From an uncultured Thermoleophilia bacterium (lineage in GTDB: Bacteria > Actinomycetota > Thermoleophilia > UBA2241), in contig CAIXSE010000144.1 in the NCBI GenBank assembly GCA_903921965.1, forward strand, positions 1 to 6,020: a stretch of DNA of 6,020 bases, written 5' to 3'. This document shows positions 1 to 6,020 of the stretch, one piece after another. A model generated the notes under the pieces. That model saw only the letters and a program-made list of their open reading frames with translations. It made no database searches and was not told the origin of the DNA. A program made the position numbers and the translations under genes. Within the stretch, counting starts at the first letter, position 1, and each line of letters starts with the position of its first letter.

Positions 1-187
1 ACTGGCCCGCAGACTCGGCACGTCGCAGGCGTACGTGACCCGACTGCTGAGCGGCAACGCGAACTTCACGCTCAGGACGATGGCGAAGCTCGCCTACGCG
101 TTGGGGATGGAACTGGACGTCGGCTTGCGGCCGCAACGAGCGACCGCGCTGCCCGCGGAGTCGGGCGGGACGGCCGCCGCTGAGTGA
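1..187 (+). CDS. XRE-family helix-turn-helix regulator, C-terminal part (5' end outside the window)
   Basis: The reading frame is open from base 2 to a TGA at 185-187 and gives 61 residues. The first ~45 (beginning LARRLGTSQAYVTRLLSG) match the second half of an XRE/Cro-C1 helix-turn-helix: the recognition helix LGTSQAYVTRLL, then NANFTLRTMAKLAYALGMELDVGL, the usual helix 4-5 region ending in a short beta segment. The last ~16 residues are a low-complexity Ala/Gly/Pro tail. Family members are DNA-binding repressors. Proteins ending in this LGMELDV pattern are often antitoxins of HigBA-like pairs, but any partner would lie to the left and cannot be seen. It converges on the mazF-like gene, with 38 bp between the two stop codons. 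Confidence 0.85.
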   Translation, partial: LARRLGTSQAYVTRLLSGNANFTLRTMAKLAYALGMELDVGLRPQRATALPAESGGTAAAE

Positions 188-225: not shown

Positions 226-564
226 TCATGCGTCCAGGATCTCGCCCAGACCCTCGACCACTCGAGCGACCTCTTCAGGAGACAGCGCGGCCAGCCGGCG
301 GCCGATGCGTTCGACCGACAACGTGCGGACCTGGCTGACCTTGACCCAGGATGACTTCGGGAGCTCCGCCGACGTGACCTCTAGGGTCAGCGGAAAGCCC
401 GCCCGCGGCGGCTGCGACGTGAGCGCGACCGCGATCACCGTTCCGGAGCGCTCATTGAAGACGTCGGCGCTCAAGATCAGCACGGGCCGCTGACCAGACT
501 GCTCGTGCCCGCGAGCCCGGCCGAGGTCGGCCCAGCGGACCTCGCCTCTCAGTAGTCCGGCCAC
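226..564 (-). CDS. mazF: MazF/PemK-family endoribonuclease toxin
   Basis: This 112-residue toxin of a type II toxin-antitoxin pair is predicted to cleave mRNA in the cytoplasm. The whole MazF fold is recognisable: the opening strand [10 protein letters not shown] (6-15), the loop [13 protein letters not shown] (20-32), the strand [10 protein letters not shown] (42-51), [13 protein letters not shown] and the terminal helix [17 protein letters not shown]. By analogy with studied MazF proteins, R26 in QRPV and T49 in ALTS are the expected catalytic pair. The frame is open farther upstream, but the family begins with RGEVWWVDLG, so the GTG at 562-564 is preferred. It overlaps the antitoxin stop by 16 nt, which is typical of translational coupling. 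No strong ribosome binding site precedes it. The length is normal and no damage is visible, so it is probably functional. Confidence 0.9.
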
Positions 565-791
565 GCGGCCAGCTCGGCGTCGATGCCCTCTTCTGCGAGC
601 GCCTGCTCCGCGACCGGGTCGAGCTTGGCGCACTCCTCGGCCAGCCGTGTACGCGCCAGCCGCGCGAGCTTCTCGTCCACGGCTTCCTGGATGGCCTGGC
701 TGCGATTCGGAAAGCGGCGCTCCGCCACCAGCCGGTCGATGGCACCGAGCGTTCCCTCATCGATGGTGATGGCGATCTTCGCGCGTCCCAC
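549..791 (-). CDS. mazE: MazE-like ribbon-helix-helix antitoxin
   Basis: This 80-residue protein lies directly upstream of, and overlaps, the MazF gene. Residues 4-45 form a ribbon-helix-helix DNA-binding domain: strand AKIAITID, helix [14 protein letters not shown], then the [14 protein letters not shown] helix typical of CopG/Arc-like antitoxins. The acidic C-terminal half ([20 protein letters not shown]... ending ELAAWPDY) resembles the flexible toxin-binding tail. The GTG at 789-791 is chosen because AGGGG (802-798) sits 6 nt before it and because it falls just after the operator-like palindrome. An ATG at 819-821 would add ten residues but lies inside that palindrome. The open frame runs back to 1031 without any antitoxin-like sequence. 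The protein should neutralise MazF and repress the operon. Confidence 0.85.
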
Positions 792-797
792 GTCGCA

Positions 798-802
798 CCC
801 CT
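798..802 (-). promoter_or_regulatory. Ribosome binding site of the mazE-like gene
   Basis: AGGGG on the minus strand lies 6 nt before the GTG at 791. It is the best Shine-Dalgarno match in this part of the window, and it decides the start in favour of the GTG over the upstream tandem ATG codons at 821 and 818. Confidence 0.6.
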
Positions 803-804
803 GA

Positions 805-823
805 GTATGATGCTTCATCATAC
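805..823 (-). promoter_or_regulatory. Palindromic operator over the -10 box of the toxin-antitoxin operon
   Basis: GTATGATGCTTCATCATAC is a perfect 8-bp inverted repeat with a 3-nt spacer. On the minus strand it contains TATGAT (822-817), a five-of-six match to the -10 consensus. At a 17-bp spacing the -35 position reads CTGTCT (845-840), which is poor. The element lies just upstream of the antitoxin ribosome binding site and start. Ribbon-helix-helix antitoxins typically bind short palindromes in their own promoter, so this is inferred to be the autoregulatory site. It is AT-rich against its surroundings. Confidence 0.65.
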
Positions 824-966: not shown

Positions 967-1185
967 CTACGACCGAGTGGTGAGCCGCCGCTTGACCTCG
1001 TCCCACGGAACGAGGCCGACGTTGCCGCCATCGAGCGCGTCCAGGCGACGGTCGAGCTCCGAGCGCTGCGTCGGCGTGAGCGGCACGGCTTCCGGCGTGG
1101 ACCGGAGGCTCTCCCACAGGTCGCTGATGAGCTGCAGACGCTCGCGGGGAGCCAGCTTCTCGATGTCGATGGCGGGGGCGTTCAT
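967..1185 (-). CDS. Addiction module antitoxin (TIGR02574/Unstab_antitox-like), apparently orphan
   Basis: This 72-residue protein shows the hallmarks of the 'putative addiction module component' family: an N-terminal helix [17 protein letters not shown], a middle helix [16 protein letters not shown], and the C-terminal [10 protein letters not shown] signature. Members neutralise RelE/ParE-type ribonuclease or gyrase toxins, normally encoded just downstream with a few bases of spacing or overlap. Here the 175 bp downstream, up to the mazE start at 791, contain no toxin-like frame. The partner is therefore lost, elsewhere, or unrecognised. The ATG at 1183-1185 is chosen because the family sequence begins here and a promoter ends 6 nt before it. 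The gene is divergent from the primase-helicase. Confidence 0.8.
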
Positions 1186-1191
1186 GACCCG

Positions 1192-1220
1192 ATGATAGGG
1201 ACTCGCCCCAGCGGCGGCAA
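1192..1220 (-). promoter_or_regulatory. Promoter of the orphan antitoxin, predicted leaderless
   Basis: On the minus strand TTGCCG (1220-1215) and TATCAT (1197-1192) are separated by exactly 17 bp. Only 6 nt lie between the -10 box and the ATG at 1185, so transcription should begin at or next to the start codon. There is no good Shine-Dalgarno sequence, which agrees with a leaderless mRNA. Confidence 0.55.
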
Positions 1221-1280
1221 CGACGTCGCGCCCGCCGGGAGATGAGGATGCAGGTACGCGCAGGGCGCACGTCAGGACGC

Positions 1281-1293
1281 CTTGGTTTCCAAG
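1281..1293. repeat. Short inverted repeat in the divergent promoter region
   Basis: CTTGGTTTCCAAG has 5-bp arms around TTT. It lies 28-40 nt before the GTG at 1322, where the -35 region of a primase-helicase promoter would fall; CAGTAT at 1310-1315 is a weak -10 candidate. It may be an operator, but it is short enough to arise by chance. Confidence 0.25.
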
Positions 1294-1321
1294 TGGACCG
1301 CTTTGCTGCCAGTATCCAGGG

Positions 1322-3787
1322 GTGGGTCCGACGGATGACGTCAACGCCGAGCTCGCGGCGCTTCGCGCCGAGCTGAGCCGGCTGCGCGCTGAGAACGACG
1401 CCCTGCGCGCAGCTCTGAGGCGTCACGCTGCCAGACTCCAGCCTGTCGCAAGCGCGACCGGACCGCCGCAGCCGGGCCAGGGCATGGACGCGACCCCCGA
1501 GCCCGCGAGCTCCGCCGTCACCCGTGACTCGCCGGAGGCCGCGAAGATCGCCCTGTTCCGCGCGCTCTTCCGCGGCCGCGAGGACGTCTTCGCGGTGCGC
1601 TGGCAGAGCAAGGCGGGACGGTCCGGCTACTCGCCTGCGTGTGCGCACGAGTGGGACCGCGCGCTGTGCGCGAAGCCCGCAGTGAAGTGCGCCGACTGCC
1701 CGCAGCGGGCGCTGCTGCGCGTGACGGACGACGTCGTGCGCGACCACCTCACCGGACGCCGCACCGTCGGCTGCTACCCCCTGCTCGCCGACGACACCTG
1801 CCTGTTCCTCGCCGTCGACTTCGACAAGGCCGAGTGGCGGCGCGACGTTTCGGCATTCACAGCCGTCTGCTCCGAACACGACGTCCCGGCCTCCGTCGAG
1901 ATCTCACGGTCCGGCGACGGAGCGCACGTCTGGCTGTTCTTCAGCGAGCCGGTCGAGGCTGTCGCCGCCCGCCGGCTCGGCACGGCGCTCCTCACCCGCA
2001 CCACAGCGCGCCGCCATGAGGTCGGCCTGGACTCCTACGACCGCCTCTTCCCCGGTCAGGACACGCTCCCAAACGGCGGCTTCGGCAACCTCATCGCGCT
2101 GCCACTCCAACGTGAGCCTCGCGACGCGGGAAGAAGTGTCTTCGTCGACGCCGAGCTGCAGCCGGCGCACGACCAGTGGGCGTTCCTCGCGAGCGTGAGG
2201 CGGATGACGCGTGCCGACGTGATGGACGCCATCTCCGGTGTGCTCGCGGGAGACGACCCGTTGGGCGCGCGCATCGCCGTCGACGACGACGTCGAGGAAC
2301 CGTGGCTGCTCCCGCCATCTGGCCGGCGCCCGGAGTCGCCGCCGGCCGGTCCGTTCCCTGCCGCGATCGAGCTCGTGTCGAGCAACCTGGTGTACGTGCC
2401 CGCCGAAGACCTGCCGCAGACCCTGCTGGACCGCCTCGTCCGTCTGGCTGCCTTCGACAACCCCGAGTTCTACCGAGCCCAGGCGATGCGGCTGCCGACG
2501 TTCGCGAAGCCGCGCATCATCAGCTGCGCCGAGGAGGTCTCCGGCTACATCGCCCTGCCGCGCGGCTGCCTCGAACCTGCGTTGGAGCTCCTCGAGTCGC
2601 TCGGCATCGCTGCGCGGGTGCGGGACGAGCGCGAGGCGGGCCGGCCGCTCACGGCCACCTTCGTCGGACATCTCACGCCGCAGCAGCTCGAGGCGGCCGA
2701 GGCGATCGCCGCTCACGACATCGGCGTGCTCAGCGCCGCCACTGCCTTCGGCAAGACGGTGGTGGCGGCGTGGCTCATCGCCGCTCGCGGGACGAACACG
2801 CTGGTGCTGGTCCACCGGCGGCAGCTCATGGACCAGTGGCGCGAGCGTCTGGCGGCGTTCCTCGAAAGGCCTATCGGGGCGATCGGCGCGGTCGGCGGCG
2901 GCCGGGCGAGGGCGACCGGCGACCTGGACGTCGCCGTCATCCAGTCGCTGAACCGACGCGGCAGCGTCGCCGACCTGGTGGCCGAGTACGGTCAGGTCAT
3001 CGTGGACGAGTGCCACCACGTCTCGGCGTTCAGCTTCGAGCAGCTCATGAGGCAGGTCCATGCCCGCTACGTGGTCGGCCTCACGGCGACGCCCACACGG
3101 AGGGACGGTCATCACCCGATCATCACCATGCAGTGCGGGCCCATCCGCTACCGCACCGACGCCAGGGCACTCGCGGAGTCGCGTCCCTTCACCCACACCG
3201 TCATCACGCGGGACACGGCGTTCTCCCTGCCGGCAGCGGAGGGCGAGCCGGGCATCCAGGCGGTGTATGCGGCCTTGGCGGCGGATGACGAGCGCAACGA
3301 GCTGATCCTCGCCGACATCCGCGCCGCGCTGGCGAGCGGGCGTTCGCCGCTCGTGCTGACGCAGCGCACCGATCACCGCGACCGCCTGGCCGAAGAGCTG
3401 CGGCGTTCGGTCGAGCACGTGTTCGTCATCTCCGGAGGAATGAGCACGAGACGCAGGCACGACGTGGCGACACAGCTTGCCGAGACGCCGGCGGACGCGC
3501 CCCGCGTCCTGGTCGCGACCGGACGCTGCGTCGGCGAGGGGTTCGACGACCCGCGCTTGGACACGCTGCACCTGGCCATGCCGGTCGCCTGGCGCGGCAC
3601 GCTGCAGCAGTACGCCGGCCGTCTGCACCGCCAGCACACGGGCAAGACCGACGTCGTCGTCTACGACTACGTGGACCGCCTTGTGCCGGTGCTGGCGCGC
3701 ATGCACCTGAAGCGGCTCGCGGGCTACCGGGCGATGGGGTACAGCGTCGACATCCCGCCGGGCGAGACTCAGACGGGGATGCTCTGA
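1322..3787 (+). CDS. TOTE-type archaeo-eukaryotic primase fused to a superfamily 2 helicase
   Basis: This 821-residue protein is predicted to prime and unwind nucleic acid in the cytoplasm. Residues 7-40 form a coiled coil (leucine-spaced LRAELSRLRAENDALRAAL). Residues 75-300 match the primase domain Pfam calls TOTE conflict system AEP: a Cys/His cluster (C107, H109, C116, C123, C126), then the catalytic D166-F-D168, the SGDGAHVW motif (197-204) with H202, and D237/D240 in LDSYD. After a ~140-residue linker region comes a complete helicase: TPQQLEAAEAI (452-462), Walker A TAFGKT (474-479), DECHH (562-566), LTATP (587-591), EGFDD (739-743) and QYAGRLHR (763-770). No nuclease domain follows. 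The GTG at 1322 keeps the coiled coil; the next in-frame ATG is residue 55. No Shine-Dalgarno sequence is evident and CAGTAT ends 6 nt upstream, so a leaderless start is possible. The family is a predicted phage or mobile-element conflict system; the role here is inferred. Confidence 0.9.
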   Translation: MGPTDDVNAELAALRAELSRLRAENDALRAALRRHAARLQPVASATGPPQPGQGMDATPEPASSAVTRDSPEAAKIALFRALFRGREDVFAVRWQSKAGRSGYSPACAHEWDRALCAKPAVKCADCPQRALLRVTDDVVRDHLTGRRTVGCYPLLADDTCLFLAVDFDKAEWRRDVSAFTAVCSEHDVPASVEISRSGDGAHVWLFFSEPVEAVAARRLGTALLTRTTARRHEVGLDSYDRLFPGQDTLPNGGFGNLIALPLQREPRDAGRSVFVDAELQPAHDQWAFLASVRRMTRADVMDAISGVLAGDDPLGARIAVDDDVEEPWLLPPSGRRPESPPAGPFPAAIELVSSNLVYVPAEDLPQTLLDRLVRLAAFDNPEFYRAQAMRLPTFAKPRIISCAEEVSGYIALPRGCLEPALELLESLGIAARVRDEREAGRPLTATFVGHLTPQQLEAAEAIAAHDIGVLSAATAFGKTVVAAWLIAARGTNTLVLVHRRQLMDQWRERLAAFLERPIGAIGAVGGGRARATGDLDVAVIQSLNRRGSVADLVAEYGQVIVDECHHVSAFSFEQLMRQVHARYVVGLTATPTRRDGHHPIITMQCGPIRYRTDARALAESRPFTHTVITRDTAFSLPAAEGEPGIQAVYAALAADDERNELILADIRAALASGRSPLVLTQRTDHRDRLAEELRRSVEHVFVISGGMSTRRRHDVATQLAETPADAPRVLVATGRCVGEGFDDPRLDTLHLAMPVAWRGTLQQYAGRLHRQHTGKTDVVVYDYVDRLVPVLARMHLKRLAGYRAMGYSVDIPPGETQTGML

Positions 3788-3809
3788 GCGACCCGACGCC
3801 GCTCGCTGA

Positions 3810-3838
3810 GCCCGCTCACGGCGGTGGATCGAGCGGGC
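3810..3838. terminator. Hairpin between convergent primase-helicase and nucleotidyltransferase genes
   Basis: GCCCGCTC (3810-3817) and GAGCGGGC (3831-3838) form a perfect 8-bp stem with a 13-nt loop. It starts 22 bp after the primase-helicase stop and lies 27 bp beyond the stop of the opposing gene. There is no T-tract. Its position in the only gap between two converging genes supports a transcript-ending role. Confidence 0.4.
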
Positions 3839-3865
3839 GAGGGCCAGCGGCGTGCGTCCGCGGAG

Positions 3866-4147
3866 TCAGGCTGCATAGAGCTCCCTGCCGTCGCGCAGCG
3901 CATCGCGGTACACGAGACCGGGGGCATCGCCGTGCGCCTCGAGATTGGAGACCGTCGCCACGAGGATGTCGAACGGCACGGTCACCCCGCGGATCCGACC
4001 GTAGAGGCGCTGCATGGTGTGGAGCCTGTGCGTGCCGTCCGGCATGACGACCAACAGGTCGATGTCGCTGTCTGCAGTCATGCCGCCCCAGGCGGCGGAA
4101 CCGAATTCCGCCACCGCGGCGCTGCACGCGGGCGCTGCCGAAGACAC
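3866..4147 (-). CDS. MNT-type nucleotidyltransferase domain protein, N-terminus probably truncated
   Basis: The 93-residue frame carries the polymerase-beta-like nucleotidyltransferase signature: FGSAAWGG (15-22), then SDIDLLVV (27-34), giving the G16-S17 motif and the metal-binding pair D28/D30. The C-terminal half (HRLHTMQRLYGRIRG, VPFDILVATVSNLEAHGD, GLVYRDALRDGRELY) is intact and typical. Family members of this size work as MNT antitoxins beside HEPN toxins, or transfer nucleotides to a partner. Only 14 residues precede the GS motif where relatives have about 25 or more, including a helix. The GTG start at 4147 directly follows an in-frame TGA and lacks a ribosome binding site. A second frame (4260 to 4078) upstream could hold the missing N-terminus, so a frameshift is suspected. 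No HEPN gene is visible nearby. Confidence 0.65.
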   Translation of the reverse strand: MSSAAPACSAAVAEFGSAAWGGMTADSDIDLLVVMPDGTHRLHTMQRLYGRIRGVTVPFDILVATVSNLEAHGDAPGLVYRDALRDGRELYAA

Positions 4148-4289: not shown

Positions 4290-5681
4290 TCACCCGTCGA
4301 AGAGCTCGGCCAGCCCGACGAGGCTCACGTTCTCGAGCGCCGCGCGCTCGACGACCTGGCTCGAGAACCCGCTCCGCGCGAACAGCACGAGCTTCGCCTG
4401 CGCCGCCTTGGGCCCCAGGGCGGCGCGCGCCCTGTGAAGCTCGTCCAGCTCCGCGACCCCCACCCGGTTGCGCCACCACTTGCAGGAGCCGAGGAGCCCG
4501 TAGCCCTTCTTGTCGAGCGTCACCACGTCGACCTCGAGATCGCTGCGCCGCGACCACCAGGAGCCGACCTCGAGGGCGCCCTCGCCGAGCGCCGAGTAGC
4601 GACCCACCCAGTCGCGGCAGACATCCTCGAAGACCGGCCCGATGAAGCTCGCGAGGTCATCCCATATCTCGGCGGCGACCTCGGCGATGCGCCCCCGGGC
4701 CAGCCGGCTCCCGTTCACGAGGACGTAGCGGAACCAGAAGCGGAAGTACGGATCGATGATCTTCCAGTGACCGCGCGCTGCTCCCTTCCCTCCGGGCTCG
4801 AGCGGCTCGACCCTGGCAACGTACCCGAGTTGCTGCAGGCGGGAGAGATACTGGGTGGCGAGTTGCTGTTTGACGCCCAGGCGACCGGCGATCGTCGACG
4901 TGGCGGTGTAGCCCTCGGCGACGGCCTGCAGGACCCCGAAGTACGGTCCGGGCCCCCTGATGCCTTCCTCCAGGCGGATGAGGTTCTCGGGCTCGCTGTG
5001 CAGCGCCGCATCCGGCGGCAGGACGGTCTCGGAGATGATCCGCGCGAGCGACCTGGAGCCGGCCCAGCACTGGTACTGCGGCGTGCCGCCGAGCACTGCG
5101 AAACGCTCTATCAACGCGTCGGGGGACGCGCCTTCCGGTGCGAACGCCGTGCAGTCGCGGTAGGTGAGCGGCAGCAGGACCGGCCTGTAGACACTGCGCC
5201 CGAACGTGGGCTTCGATCCCGTCAGCAGTCCTTGCATGAAGCTGAGCGCGCTGCCGCTGAGGATGAGCAGCACCGGGGTGTGTTGCCCATCCCACTCGTC
5301 CCAGAAGCGCTGGATCGTCGAGACGAGGGCCGGGTCAGACGAGGCGAGGTACTGGAACTCGTCGAGAGCGATGACGACGGGCGCCACTCGCGCGGCCTGG
5401 TCAGCCACGAACTGCAGGGCGTCGGCCCACGTGCCGAAGGTCAGCGGCGGCGCGCCGGCGAGCAGCCGGCTGCACTCCCTCGCGAAGGCCTCGAGCTGCA
5501 GGGCGCGCGGCTGCTCCTCGGCCTGGAAGTGGACGACGCGCTCTCCCGTGAGCGCGACGCGCAGCAGGAACGTCTTGCCGATACGACGCCGGCCCCGCAG
5601 GATCACCAGGGCCGGCGGGTCGGCGGCGAGCTCCCGGAGCTCGCTGATCTCACGCTGGCGGTCGACGATTTCCCTGGGCAT
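4290..5681 (-). CDS. Archaeal-type ATPase with DUF234/PD-(D/E)XK-like C-terminal domain
   Basis: This 463-residue protein resembles the ATPase_2 (PF01637) family of STAND/AAA-like NTPases followed by DUF234. The ATPase core shows Walker A GRRRIGKT (30-37), Walker B VVIALDEFQYL (102-112, D107/E108) and a sensor LILSGSALSFM (139-149). A winged helix follows (about 255-292). The C-terminal nuclease-like fold has E352 in FEDVCRDWV, E383/D385 in DLEVDVV, and GSCKWW (398-403) with K401. The usual GECKW reads GSCKW, so the catalytic Glu expected at 399 is Ser. The frame stays open to 5885, but the ATG at 5681 is chosen because VDRQREISELREL matches the family's true N-terminus and the sequence upstream is a promoter repeat. 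The function of this family is poorly known; members are common in mobile and defence regions. The nucleotidyltransferase lies 142 bp downstream on the same strand. Confidence 0.88.
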   Translation of the reverse strand: MPREIVDRQREISELRELAADPPALVILRGRRRIGKTFLLRVALTGERVVHFQAEEQPRALQLEAFARECSRLLAGAPPLTFGTWADALQFVADQAARVAPVVIALDEFQYLASSDPALVSTIQRFWDEWDGQHTPVLLILSGSALSFMQGLLTGSKPTFGRSVYRPVLLPLTYRDCTAFAPEGASPDALIERFAVLGGTPQYQCWAGSRSLARIISETVLPPDAALHSEPENLIRLEEGIRGPGPYFGVLQAVAEGYTATSTIAGRLGVKQQLATQYLSRLQQLGYVARVEPLEPGGKGAARGHWKIIDPYFRFWFRYVLVNGSRLARGRIAEVAAEIWDDLASFIGPVFEDVCRDWVGRYSALGEGALEVGSWWSRRSDLEVDVVTLDKKGYGLLGSCKWWRNRVGVAELDELHRARAALGPKAAQAKLVLFARSGFSSQVVERAALENVSLVGLAELFDG

Positions 5682-5688
5682 GCACGAC

Positions 5689-5717
5689 ACGCTACTGGTA
5701 AAGCCACGACTTGTAAA
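5689..5717 (-). promoter_or_regulatory. Promoter of the ATPase gene inside the repeat array, predicted leaderless
   Basis: On the minus strand TTTACA (5717-5712) and TAGCGT (5694-5689) are 17 bp apart. Seven nt separate the -10 box from the ATG at 5681, and no Shine-Dalgarno sequence is present, so the mRNA is probably leaderless. The -35 box is part of one repeat copy and the -10 box lies at the end of the next, so a protein bound to the repeats would control access. Confidence 0.5.
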
Positions 5718-5750
5718 GTCATGACTTGTCAATCTACGACTTGTGAACCT
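5691..5750. repeat. Four tandem 15-bp direct repeats upstream of the ATPase gene
   Basis: Four head-to-tail units start at 5691, 5706, 5721 and 5736. The last three share ACGACTTGT or ATGACTTGT, followed by a variable AA-containing tail; the first (GCTACTGGTAAAGCC) is degenerate. Units 2 and 3 meet in a perfect 12-bp palindrome, AAGTCATGACTT (5716-5727). The block is clearly AT-richer than its surroundings and lies over the putative ATPase promoter. Such iterated sites usually bind a regulator or initiator; no specific protein is recognised. The 15-bp period also keeps the upstream reading frame open, which explains the long false N-terminal extension of the ATPase frame. Confidence 0.8.
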
Positions 5751-5786
5751 GGAGGGCGGGGCTGGGCCGACGGGGCCTTCGTCGGT

Positions 5787-5813
5787 GCCAGACCGATGTG
5801 TCGCCAGTCTGGC
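5787..5813. repeat. Inverted repeat in the divergent ATPase/J-domain intergenic region
   Basis: GCCAGAC (5787-5793) and GTCTGGC (5807-5813) form a 7-bp stem with a 13-nt loop. A competing stem TCGGT/ACCGA (5782-5786 and 5792-5796) overlaps the left arm. The sequence does not match the CIRCE or HAIR heat-shock operators. Its role is unknown. Confidence 0.35.
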
Positions 5814-5823
5814 TGCCCTGGAT

Positions 5824-5839
5824 GCGCGGGCGCCCGCGC
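5824..5839. repeat. Perfect 16-bp GC palindrome upstream of the J-domain gene
   Basis: GCGCGGGCGCCCGCGC is fully self-complementary. It lies 17 bp before TACACT (5856-5861), a weak -10 candidate for the J-domain gene, so it would occupy the -35 region. It is made only of G and C in a GC-rich genome, which reduces its significance. Confidence 0.3.
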
Positions 5840-5919
5840 GCGGCCGCCTCTGTCGTACACTTCCTCCGCTGCCGGTGATGTCCACCGGGTCGCGGACCGG
5901 GCGGGCGAAGCGGCATGAC

Positions 5920-5926
5920 GGGGGGA
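5920..5926 (+). promoter_or_regulatory. Ribosome binding site of the J-domain gene
   Basis: GGGGGGA lies 5 nt before the GTG at 5932 and supports that start. An ATG at 5915 just before it opens only a six-codon frame, ending in a TGA (5933-5935) that overlaps the GTG. Confidence 0.5.
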
Positions 5927-5931
5927 CGGCC

Positions 5932-6020
5932 GTGACGAGAGACGACGAGGACTACTACGCGCTCCTGGGCGTGCCACGCGACGCCTCGCCGGAGACGGTC
6001 CGGCACGTCTACCGCCAGCT
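5932..6020 (+). CDS. J-domain (DnaJ-like) protein, N-terminal part (3' end outside the window)
   Basis: The first 29 codons read through DDEDYYALLGVPRDASPETV and then RHVYRQ. This is helix I of a J domain (DYYALLGV), the PRDAS turn, and the start of helix II, with the next codon cut by the window end. J-domain proteins stimulate the ATPase of an Hsp70 (DnaK) partner through an HPD motif, which would lie beyond the right edge. The GTG at 5932 is preferred: the J domain starts within eight residues of it and GGGGGGA precedes it. Whether this is a canonical DnaJ, a CbpA type or another J protein cannot be told from 29 residues. It is divergent from the ATPase gene, with 250 bp between the start codons. 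Confidence 0.85.
   Translation, partial: MTRDDEDYYALLGVPRDASPETVRHVYRQ

What the first reader, a model, noticed from the sequence alone, without database searches (positions are those of the whole stretch)
1322..3787. Single-protein TOTE-type primase-helicase as a candidate conflict system
Seen: a coiled coil, a Cys/His cluster, AEP catalytic motifs (D166/D168, H202, D237/D240) and a full superfamily 2 helicase in one intact 821-residue chain. Known: Pfam names this primase type after predicted TOTE conflict systems, with no well-established biochemistry that I can cite. Inference: it may prime on and remodel invading or damaged DNA or RNA, with the Cys/His cluster and coiled coil giving template binding and oligomerisation. 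The absence of a fused nuclease suggests an effector elsewhere or a non-nucleolytic mechanism.
Basis: partly seen in the sequence, partly recalled or inferred. Interest (0 to 1): 0.7.

Follow-up and report, generated by a model that had tools for sequence, protein, structure and literature searches.

The report
Accessory primase-helicase beside toxin-antitoxin genes
This gene makes a single protein that joins a primer-making polymerase to a DNA-opening motor; it is an ordinary member of a large, already named bacterial family that often sits beside toxin-antitoxin genes and probably handles foreign or stalled DNA, which has not been shown for this type.

Summary
ORF 1322-3787 (+) is one intact 821-residue chain: coiled-coil helix (3-39), CAPP-type primase-polymerase (75-301), XPB/UvsW-like module (347-440) and a full superfamily 2 motor. 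Two corrections: the 'Cys/His cluster' is a four-cysteine set kept or lost as a unit (complete in 70 of 79 aligned sequences, absent in 9), and the invariant third acid is D240, not D237. 'TOTE' is only Pfam's name for the primase domain; TOTE systems are defined by TPR, OB and TBP parts plus an effector, and TBP was not found in 40 of 40 searched genomes that carry relatives. The nearest characterised primases (CAPP) have published biochemistry and structures. The primase domain is patchy (5-26% of four genome samples), the gene crosses phyla and occurs on plasmids, and no partner gene is conserved (largest neighbour cluster 7 of 78 loci). New here: 15 of 68 relatives, and 14 of 55 in a second, nearly independent set, carry a fused C-terminal nuclease (PLD, DUF559 or NOV_C) that the window lacks; and where AbiE genes occur they are adjacent (5 of 5 loci in the second set). 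Most likely an accessory DNA-remodelling primase-translocase used against foreign DNA; unproven.

The parts
1322..3787 (+). primase-helicase gene, 821 aa from GTG 1322 (ATG 1484 is the alternative start), between two genes on the opposite strand
1328..1438 (+). N-terminal coiled-coil helix, residues 3-39 (dimerisation inferred); residues 40-62 modelled with pLDDT under 50
   Evidence: L21, E24, N25, L28 at 90% or more
1544..2224 (+). AEP primase-polymerase domain, residues 75-301, CAPP type
1640..1699 (+). four-cysteine set C107, C116, C123, C126 (probable zinc site; metal inferred)
   Evidence: 70 of 79 rows CCCC, 9 of 79 lack all four
1817..1825 (+). AEP motif I, D166-F-D168
   Evidence: 79 of 79; aligned with MpCAPP D177/D179 (residue numbers, offset worked out by hand)
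1925..1927 (+). AEP motif II, H202
   Evidence: 79 of 79
2039..2041 (+). AEP motif III candidate, D240
   Evidence: 79 of 79; D237 only 57 of 79; the profile alignment itself sets D237 against CAPP E260, beside a gap
2360..2641 (+). XPB/UvsW-like module before the motor, residues 347-440
2642..3757 (+). SF2 motor (two RecA-like lobes), residues 441-812; Walker A K478, DECH 562-565, R767/R770
967..1185 (-). TIGR02574 addiction-module component, divergent from the primase-helicase
226..821 (-). RHH antitoxin-like protein (549-821) and PemK/MazF toxin (about 226-552)
3866..4147 (-). MNT-type nucleotidyltransferase, convergent neighbour
4290..5681 (-). ATPase_2-DUF234 protein, PADLOC candidate PDC-S27

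Best explanation
It is a stand-alone, horizontally carried DNA-processing enzyme: a CAPP-type primase-polymerase fused to an XPB/UvsW-type double-stranded DNA translocase and probably paired through its N-terminal coiled coil. Inferred working: the XPB-like module and motor engage branched, stalled or incoming DNA and open it; the exposed strand is handed to the primase-polymerase, which starts a short strand de novo and extends it with strand displacement; the cysteine site, where present, steadies the template or starting nucleotide. The most likely use is against plasmids and phages. Related copies add a nuclease at the C-terminus; the window's copy would act by remodelling and priming alone, or pass DNA to host nucleases. 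Shown: domains, conservation, predicted fold, patchy and mobile distribution, nuclease-fused relatives, toxin-antitoxin neighbours. Inferred: every catalytic step in this protein, the dimer, zinc, substrate and defence role.
For: AEP and motor folds with invariant residues. CAPP enzymes prime, polymerise and displace strands (PMC8211822, passages and discussion). Patchy presence: PF22548 over its cut-off in 14 of 299, 78 of 297, 14 of 299 and 54 of 297 genomes (the AEP domain in any architecture). On plasmids: 91 of 237 matching records cover 80% or more of the protein. Nuclease tails in 15 of 68 and 14 of 55 complete genes; on a tree of 68 rows the three kinds need 3 changes, one each. AbiE in 5 of 59 loci of the second set, nearest AbiE gene at -22 to 287 bases in all five, although only 172 of 701 ORFs lie within 1 kb. 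Fic 5 of 108 near, under 2 of 108 far. PADLOC PrimPol model E 3.3e-96.
Against: I found no experiment on defence by this architecture in the papers searched. Toxin-antitoxin neighbours also mark plasmids and islands in general, so they fit simple mobile cargo. Distant genes are not free of such families: ParE toxin 2 of 130 and several PADLOC models, among them Cas3 and capP in 2 and PD-T4-6 and DpdF in 1 (93 models matched at 1e-10 against 220 near). AAA_14/DUF4143 neighbours were 6/4 of 137 near in the first set but 3/2 of 108 near against DUF4143 2 of 108 far in the second. No AbiE or Fic match among the window ORFs scanned. Of the five AbiE loci one (L217) is a close relative of the first set's L003 (91% over 305 residues), so it is not fully independent. 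A Thermus Ppol first tied to DNA defence was later found with addAB mutations in every mutant (PMC9751324, abstract).
Confidence: 0.5

Rival explanations
1. It is a replication or maintenance factor of plasmids and integrated elements: the motor opens DNA and the primase starts strands for the element's own copying or transfer.
For: Found on plasmids, 99 of 237 matching records typed conjugative (no baseline was computed); a transposase or integrase lies within 6 kb in five of five annotated plasmid neighbourhoods read (a sixth, carries no annotation); other AEP families are linked to plasmids and other mobile elements, and some all3500-type AEPs have a domain remotely like superfamily 2 (PMC5862659, passages).
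Against: No neighbour cluster, so no replication-initiation gene, exceeds 7 of 78 loci; it also sits in bacterial chromosomes (L028, L057); no phage record among 50,697 covers 80% of it, and a profile scan of IMG/VR confirmed 14 contigs (limited to two short patterns).
Confidence: 0.22
2. It is a damage-tolerance enzyme of the host: the XPB/UvsW-like motor reverses or remodels stalled forks and the primase restarts synthesis past the lesion.
For: Best motor matches include XPB, UvsW and RadD; PrimPol re-priming is established in eukaryotes (PMC8136793 seen only in the listing; otherwise recalled).
Against: Patchy distribution (about 5% in two of four samples), crossing of phyla on the tree, the match split over several ORFs in 10 of 78 loci (some may be assembly errors), and fused restriction-type nucleases in relatives.
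Confidence: 0.2
3. It serves CRISPR adaptation like CAPP enzymes, making prespacers.
For: PADLOC and NCBIfam CRISPR-associated PrimPol models match (PDLC01465 3.3e-96; NF040561 9.7e-30 but 103.6 bits against a cut-off of 200); some CAPPs have helicase domains; Cas1 is present in 13 of 40 host genomes.
Against: No CRISPR array in the window or in 78 loci by a simple exact-repeat scan; Cas1 not found in 27 of 40 host genomes.
Confidence: 0.05

Closest known systems
CRISPR-associated Prim-Pol CAPP_A, helicase type, and its non-CRISPR homologues (Zabrady et al. 2021, PMC8211822)
   Different: No CRISPR array or cas gene seen nearby; N-terminal coiled coil where the MpCAPP type has TPR; a Cys4 set inside the primase region.
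TOTE conflict systems (TPR, OB, TBP, Effector; Aravind et al. 2022, as quoted in PMC12458937)
   Same: Pfam names the primase domain after them; some relatives bear that name in NCBI.
   Different: TBP not found in 40 of 40 host genomes of relatives, no TPR or OB match in the window ORFs scanned, no effector fused here.
XPB / UvsW / RadD superfamily 2 translocases
   Same: Whole C-terminal half including the module before the motor for XPB and UvsW; the motor alone for RadD.
   Different: Fused to a primase; no conserved partner such as Bax1 seen.
SauUSI ATP-dependent restriction endonuclease
   Different: SauUSI has no primase (recalled); the window gene has no nuclease.
Thermus Ppol-Hel of ICETh2 (PMC7693054 passages; PMC9751324 abstract)
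   Same: Primase-polymerase with a helicase on a mobile element.
   Different: Separate genes; the single-chain Meiothermus form has a DUF927 domain.

Membership tests
Archaeo-eukaryotic primase superfamily | motifs hhhDhD/E, sxH and hD/E in the AEP fold (as given in PMC5862659) | tested here: met
[quoted passage not shown]
   definition from PMC8211822
[quoted passage not shown]
   no array in window or 78 loci by a simple exact-repeat scan; no cas gene among eight window ORFs scanned. So it is not filed as a CAPP; it fits the non-CRISPR homologues of the same paper
TOTE conflict system | TBP (TATA-binding-like) component | tested here: not met
   0 of 40 host genomes of relatives match PF00352, four archaeal controls ring; the window's own genome is not held; a divergent TBP would be missed
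TOTE conflict system | TPR and OB-fold components | tested here: inconclusive
   none in eight window ORFs nor among the families shown for neighbours; those lists are cut at 25 of 121 and 25 of 72 families
TOTE conflict system | effector | tested here: inconclusive
   no fused nuclease in the window; relatives have PLD, DUF559 or NOV_C
XPB-type SF2 translocase | two RecA-like lobes preceded by a DRD-type module | tested here: met
XPB-type SF2 translocase | RED motif and thumb insertion (recalled) | not tested
   residue-level structural alignment was not available
Anti-phage defence system | protection against phage or plasmid | not testable with these tools
   needs experiment
Anti-phage defence system | neighbourhood enriched in conflict genes | tested here: met
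   AbiE and Fic near but not two or more far in two sets; modest, families were chosen after the first set, distant genes also match some defence models, and mobile islands would show the same

The most novel reading that the evidence does not exclude
The family is a modular anti-mobile-element platform: one primase-translocase core that finds and re-primes or jams foreign replication intermediates, with an exchangeable C-terminal nuclease (PLD, DUF559 or NOV_C) in about a fifth to a quarter of copies, while nuclease-free copies such as this one rely on neighbouring toxin systems (AbiE, Fic, MNT and the like) as the killing arm.
Probability: 0.15. Interest if true: 0.7.

Novelty: new member of a known kind. 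Interest (0 to 1): 0.35.

Why it matters
The protein is one of thousands of relatives and the family already carries a database name, but that name (TOTE) points readers to a system whose TBP part was not found in the hosts searched. The family-level facts found here (interchangeable C-terminal nucleases, an all-or-none cysteine site, AbiE and Fic as adjacent genes) make a testable case that primer synthesis itself can be part of a DNA-targeting conflict enzyme.

Tried and rejected
Whole-genome context of the window: no genome is held, so prevalence and neighbours come from relatives. CRISPR role: disfavoured. Phage origin: 1,100 phage records match, none over 80% of the protein, the 15 listed ones only from residue 348 on; a scan of IMG/VR with the window protein alone confirmed no relative and a profile scan confirmed 14 contigs, whose viral nature I did not check. 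Conserved operon partner: not found, largest neighbour cluster 7 of 78 loci among 902 ORFs; a 181-187 aa gene that overlaps the start is seen in four beta/gammaproteobacterial loci, with a weak hit in a fifth locus further away. The AbiE proximity in the first set (13 of 77 loci, nearest gene within 1.75 kb in all) is biased because the seeds were picked from near genes, and the binomial values treat related loci as independent; so I repeated it on a second set. RNA families: none over threshold in the window. The scan of 1100-3900 gave one sigma-70-like site, on the minus strand, and no terminator. TOTE literature: the phrase 'TOTE conflict' gave no paper; four papers that I tried by recalled identifier are not held, so the TOTE definition is taken from PMC12458937 (passages). 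I saw no report of PLD, DUF559 or NOV_C fusions to this primase in the listings, which cover open-licence papers only and did not name those domains as search terms.

Rows dropped: alignment A1 holds 79 rows, that is the window protein, 34 of the 120 listed database proteins and 44 of 78 loci; nuclease-fused, split and badly truncated loci were mostly left out. Neighbour sets leave out ORFs under 90 or over 700 aa. First set: 137 near; 130 of 256 far drawn at random. Second set: 60 loci fetched, L221 dropped (no qualifying ORF); of the 59, L207 and L218 turned out to be the first set's L009 and L050 again. Neither is among the loci with AbiE or with an assigned nuclease tail, but they put three of the 108 near proteins in both sets; 108 of 291 far were drawn. 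The first tree (75 rows) needed 5 changes for the nuclease label, two Bacteroidota rows cut short at contig ends counting as nuclease-free; the second (68 rows) leaves out L033, L050, L053, L058, L063, L070 and the database protein P0073, and needs 3. ORFs were called by a simple longest-first script, so some small ones are spurious and some starts too early.

Full report

Residues. In 79 aligned sequences D166, D168, H202 and D240 of the primase and K478, D562, E563 of the motor are invariant. D166 and D168 align with the CAPP aspartates whose double alanine mutant is inactive (mutant from PMC8211822, passages; offset worked out by hand). The HMM alignment sets D237 against CAPP E260 (residue named in PMC10345425, passages) beside a four-residue gap, so this point is open but conservation favours D240. 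The cluster C107, C116, C123, C126 is complete in 70 of 79 and wholly absent in 9 of 79, with 2 changes on the tree. H109 is asparagine in 47 of 79. This all-or-none pattern fits a four-cysteine metal site that is useful but dispensable.

Relatives. A protein search scored 7,999 candidates, all with E at or below 0.001; the 120 listed carry PF22548. Seventy-eight genome loci in many phyla encode relatives at 40-83% identity in the best segment, some of them fragments. In four samples of genomes the AEP domain is over its cut-off in 14 of 299, 78 of 297, 14 of 299 and 54 of 297; these include other architectures, seen as shorter frames. The tree mixes phyla, for example a Hakubella copy among Syntrophaceae. 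In plasmids 237 records match and 91 cover 80% or more. In phage records 1,100 match, none over 80%.

Nuclease-fused relatives. Fifteen of 68 loci with a complete C-terminus carry an extra 133-185 residues (a sixteenth, L044, is cut by its contig end). Pfam names the tails PLDc_2 (L004), DUF559 (L030, L032) and NOV_C (L027) in 4 of 5 scanned; L070 has lost the PLD signature. The other tails were assigned by similarity to these (PLD 5, DUF559 8 plus L044, NOV_C 2 in all). In the second set 14 of 55 complete genes have such tails, plus one at a contig end; PLD 10 and DUF559 5 were assigned. On a tree of 68 rows PLD, DUF559 and NOV_C (one row) each need one change; a first tree with truncated rows needed more. 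The window's chain ends at the motor; its nearest rows are nuclease-free, among them an actinobacterial copy.

Neighbours. The genes on either side of the window gene are on the opposite strand: TIGR02574 to the left (with RHH-MazF beyond it, and a partial HigA-like gene on the plus strand at 2-187), an MNT nucleotidyltransferase and an ATPase_2-DUF234 protein (PADLOC PDC-S27, E 8.7e-37) to the right. Across 78 loci no neighbour cluster exceeds 7 loci. Nearest neighbours in the first set (137 proteins) include AbiEii 7, AAA_14 6, DUF4143 4, AlbA_2 3, Fic 3 and MNT types 3; none of these is among the families with two or more members in 130 distant genes, which do include ParE toxin 2. PADLOC models matched at 1e-10 number 220 near and 93 far. 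Because these families were picked after the fact, I repeated the test on a second set of 59 loci, two of them repeats of the first. Fic is 5 of 108 near, AbiEi_4 3 and AbiEii 1; neither Fic nor AbiE reaches two in 108 distant genes. DUF4143 did not repeat (2 near, 2 far). AbiE genes occur in 5 of 59 loci, and in all five the nearest lies within 287 bases of the gene, while 172 of 701 ORFs lie within 1 kb. One of the five, L217, is a close relative of the first set's L003; the other four are 50-60% identical to their nearest first-set gene. Six plasmid neighbourhoods were read of 237 records: five annotated ones show HipA, Fic, VapBC, XRE or RelE genes and transposases or integrases within 6 kb; one has no annotation.

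What it is not. TOTE means TPR, OB, TBP, Effector (PMC12458937 passages). PF00352 was not found in 40 of 40 host genomes, while four archaeal controls ring. No CRISPR array was found by a simple scan; 13 of 40 host genomes have Cas1.

Mechanism. CAPP enzymes make primers, polymerise DNA and displace strands. XPB and UvsW are motors that act on double-stranded and branched DNA (established knowledge, recalled). The simplest reading is a paired enzyme that opens branched or incoming DNA and lays down new strands on it. That it does so against foreign DNA is inferred from mobility, neighbours and restriction-type nuclease tails. A caution comes from Thermus: a Ppol first tied to DNA defence (PMC7693054, passages) was later found with addAB mutations in every mutant (PMC9751324, abstract). 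I put defence at about one half, element maintenance at a fifth and host damage tolerance at a fifth.

Noticed in passing
window 226-821 (-) and 967-1185 (-): Two toxin-antitoxin type units left of the gene: RHH plus PemK/MazF, and a TIGR02574 antitoxin-like protein with no toxin recognised next to it; a partial HigA-like protein at 2-187 (+).
   Followed up: partly
window 3866-4147 (-): Small MNT nucleotidyltransferase with a GS...SDID motif; no HEPN partner among the ORFs scanned.
   Followed up: partly
window 5694-5747: Three direct copies of a 24-base unit spaced by 15 bases just upstream of the ATPase_2-DUF234 gene; might be an operator or a slipped repeat.
   Followed up: partly
window 5931-6018 (+): Start of a frame reading DYYALLGVPRDAS, which looks like a DnaJ J-domain (by eye, recalled; Pfam gave no match to 5743-6018).
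   Followed up: no
L088:5370-5915, L090:5292-5855, L091:5370-5921, L047:about 1606-2148: A 181-187 aa gene of unassigned family overlaps the start of the primase-helicase in beta/gammaproteobacterial copies, a possible clade-specific partner.
   Followed up: partly
L050, L060, L061, L064, L065, L067, L069, L073, L074, L075: The match is split over two or more ORFs in 10 of 78 loci, two of them in named strains (L065, L073); decay or assembly error.
   Followed up: no
L012, L014, L016, L019, L025, L033, L043, L066, L068: Copies, eight of nine from Acidobacteriota, that lack all four cysteines of the probable metal site.
   Followed up: partly
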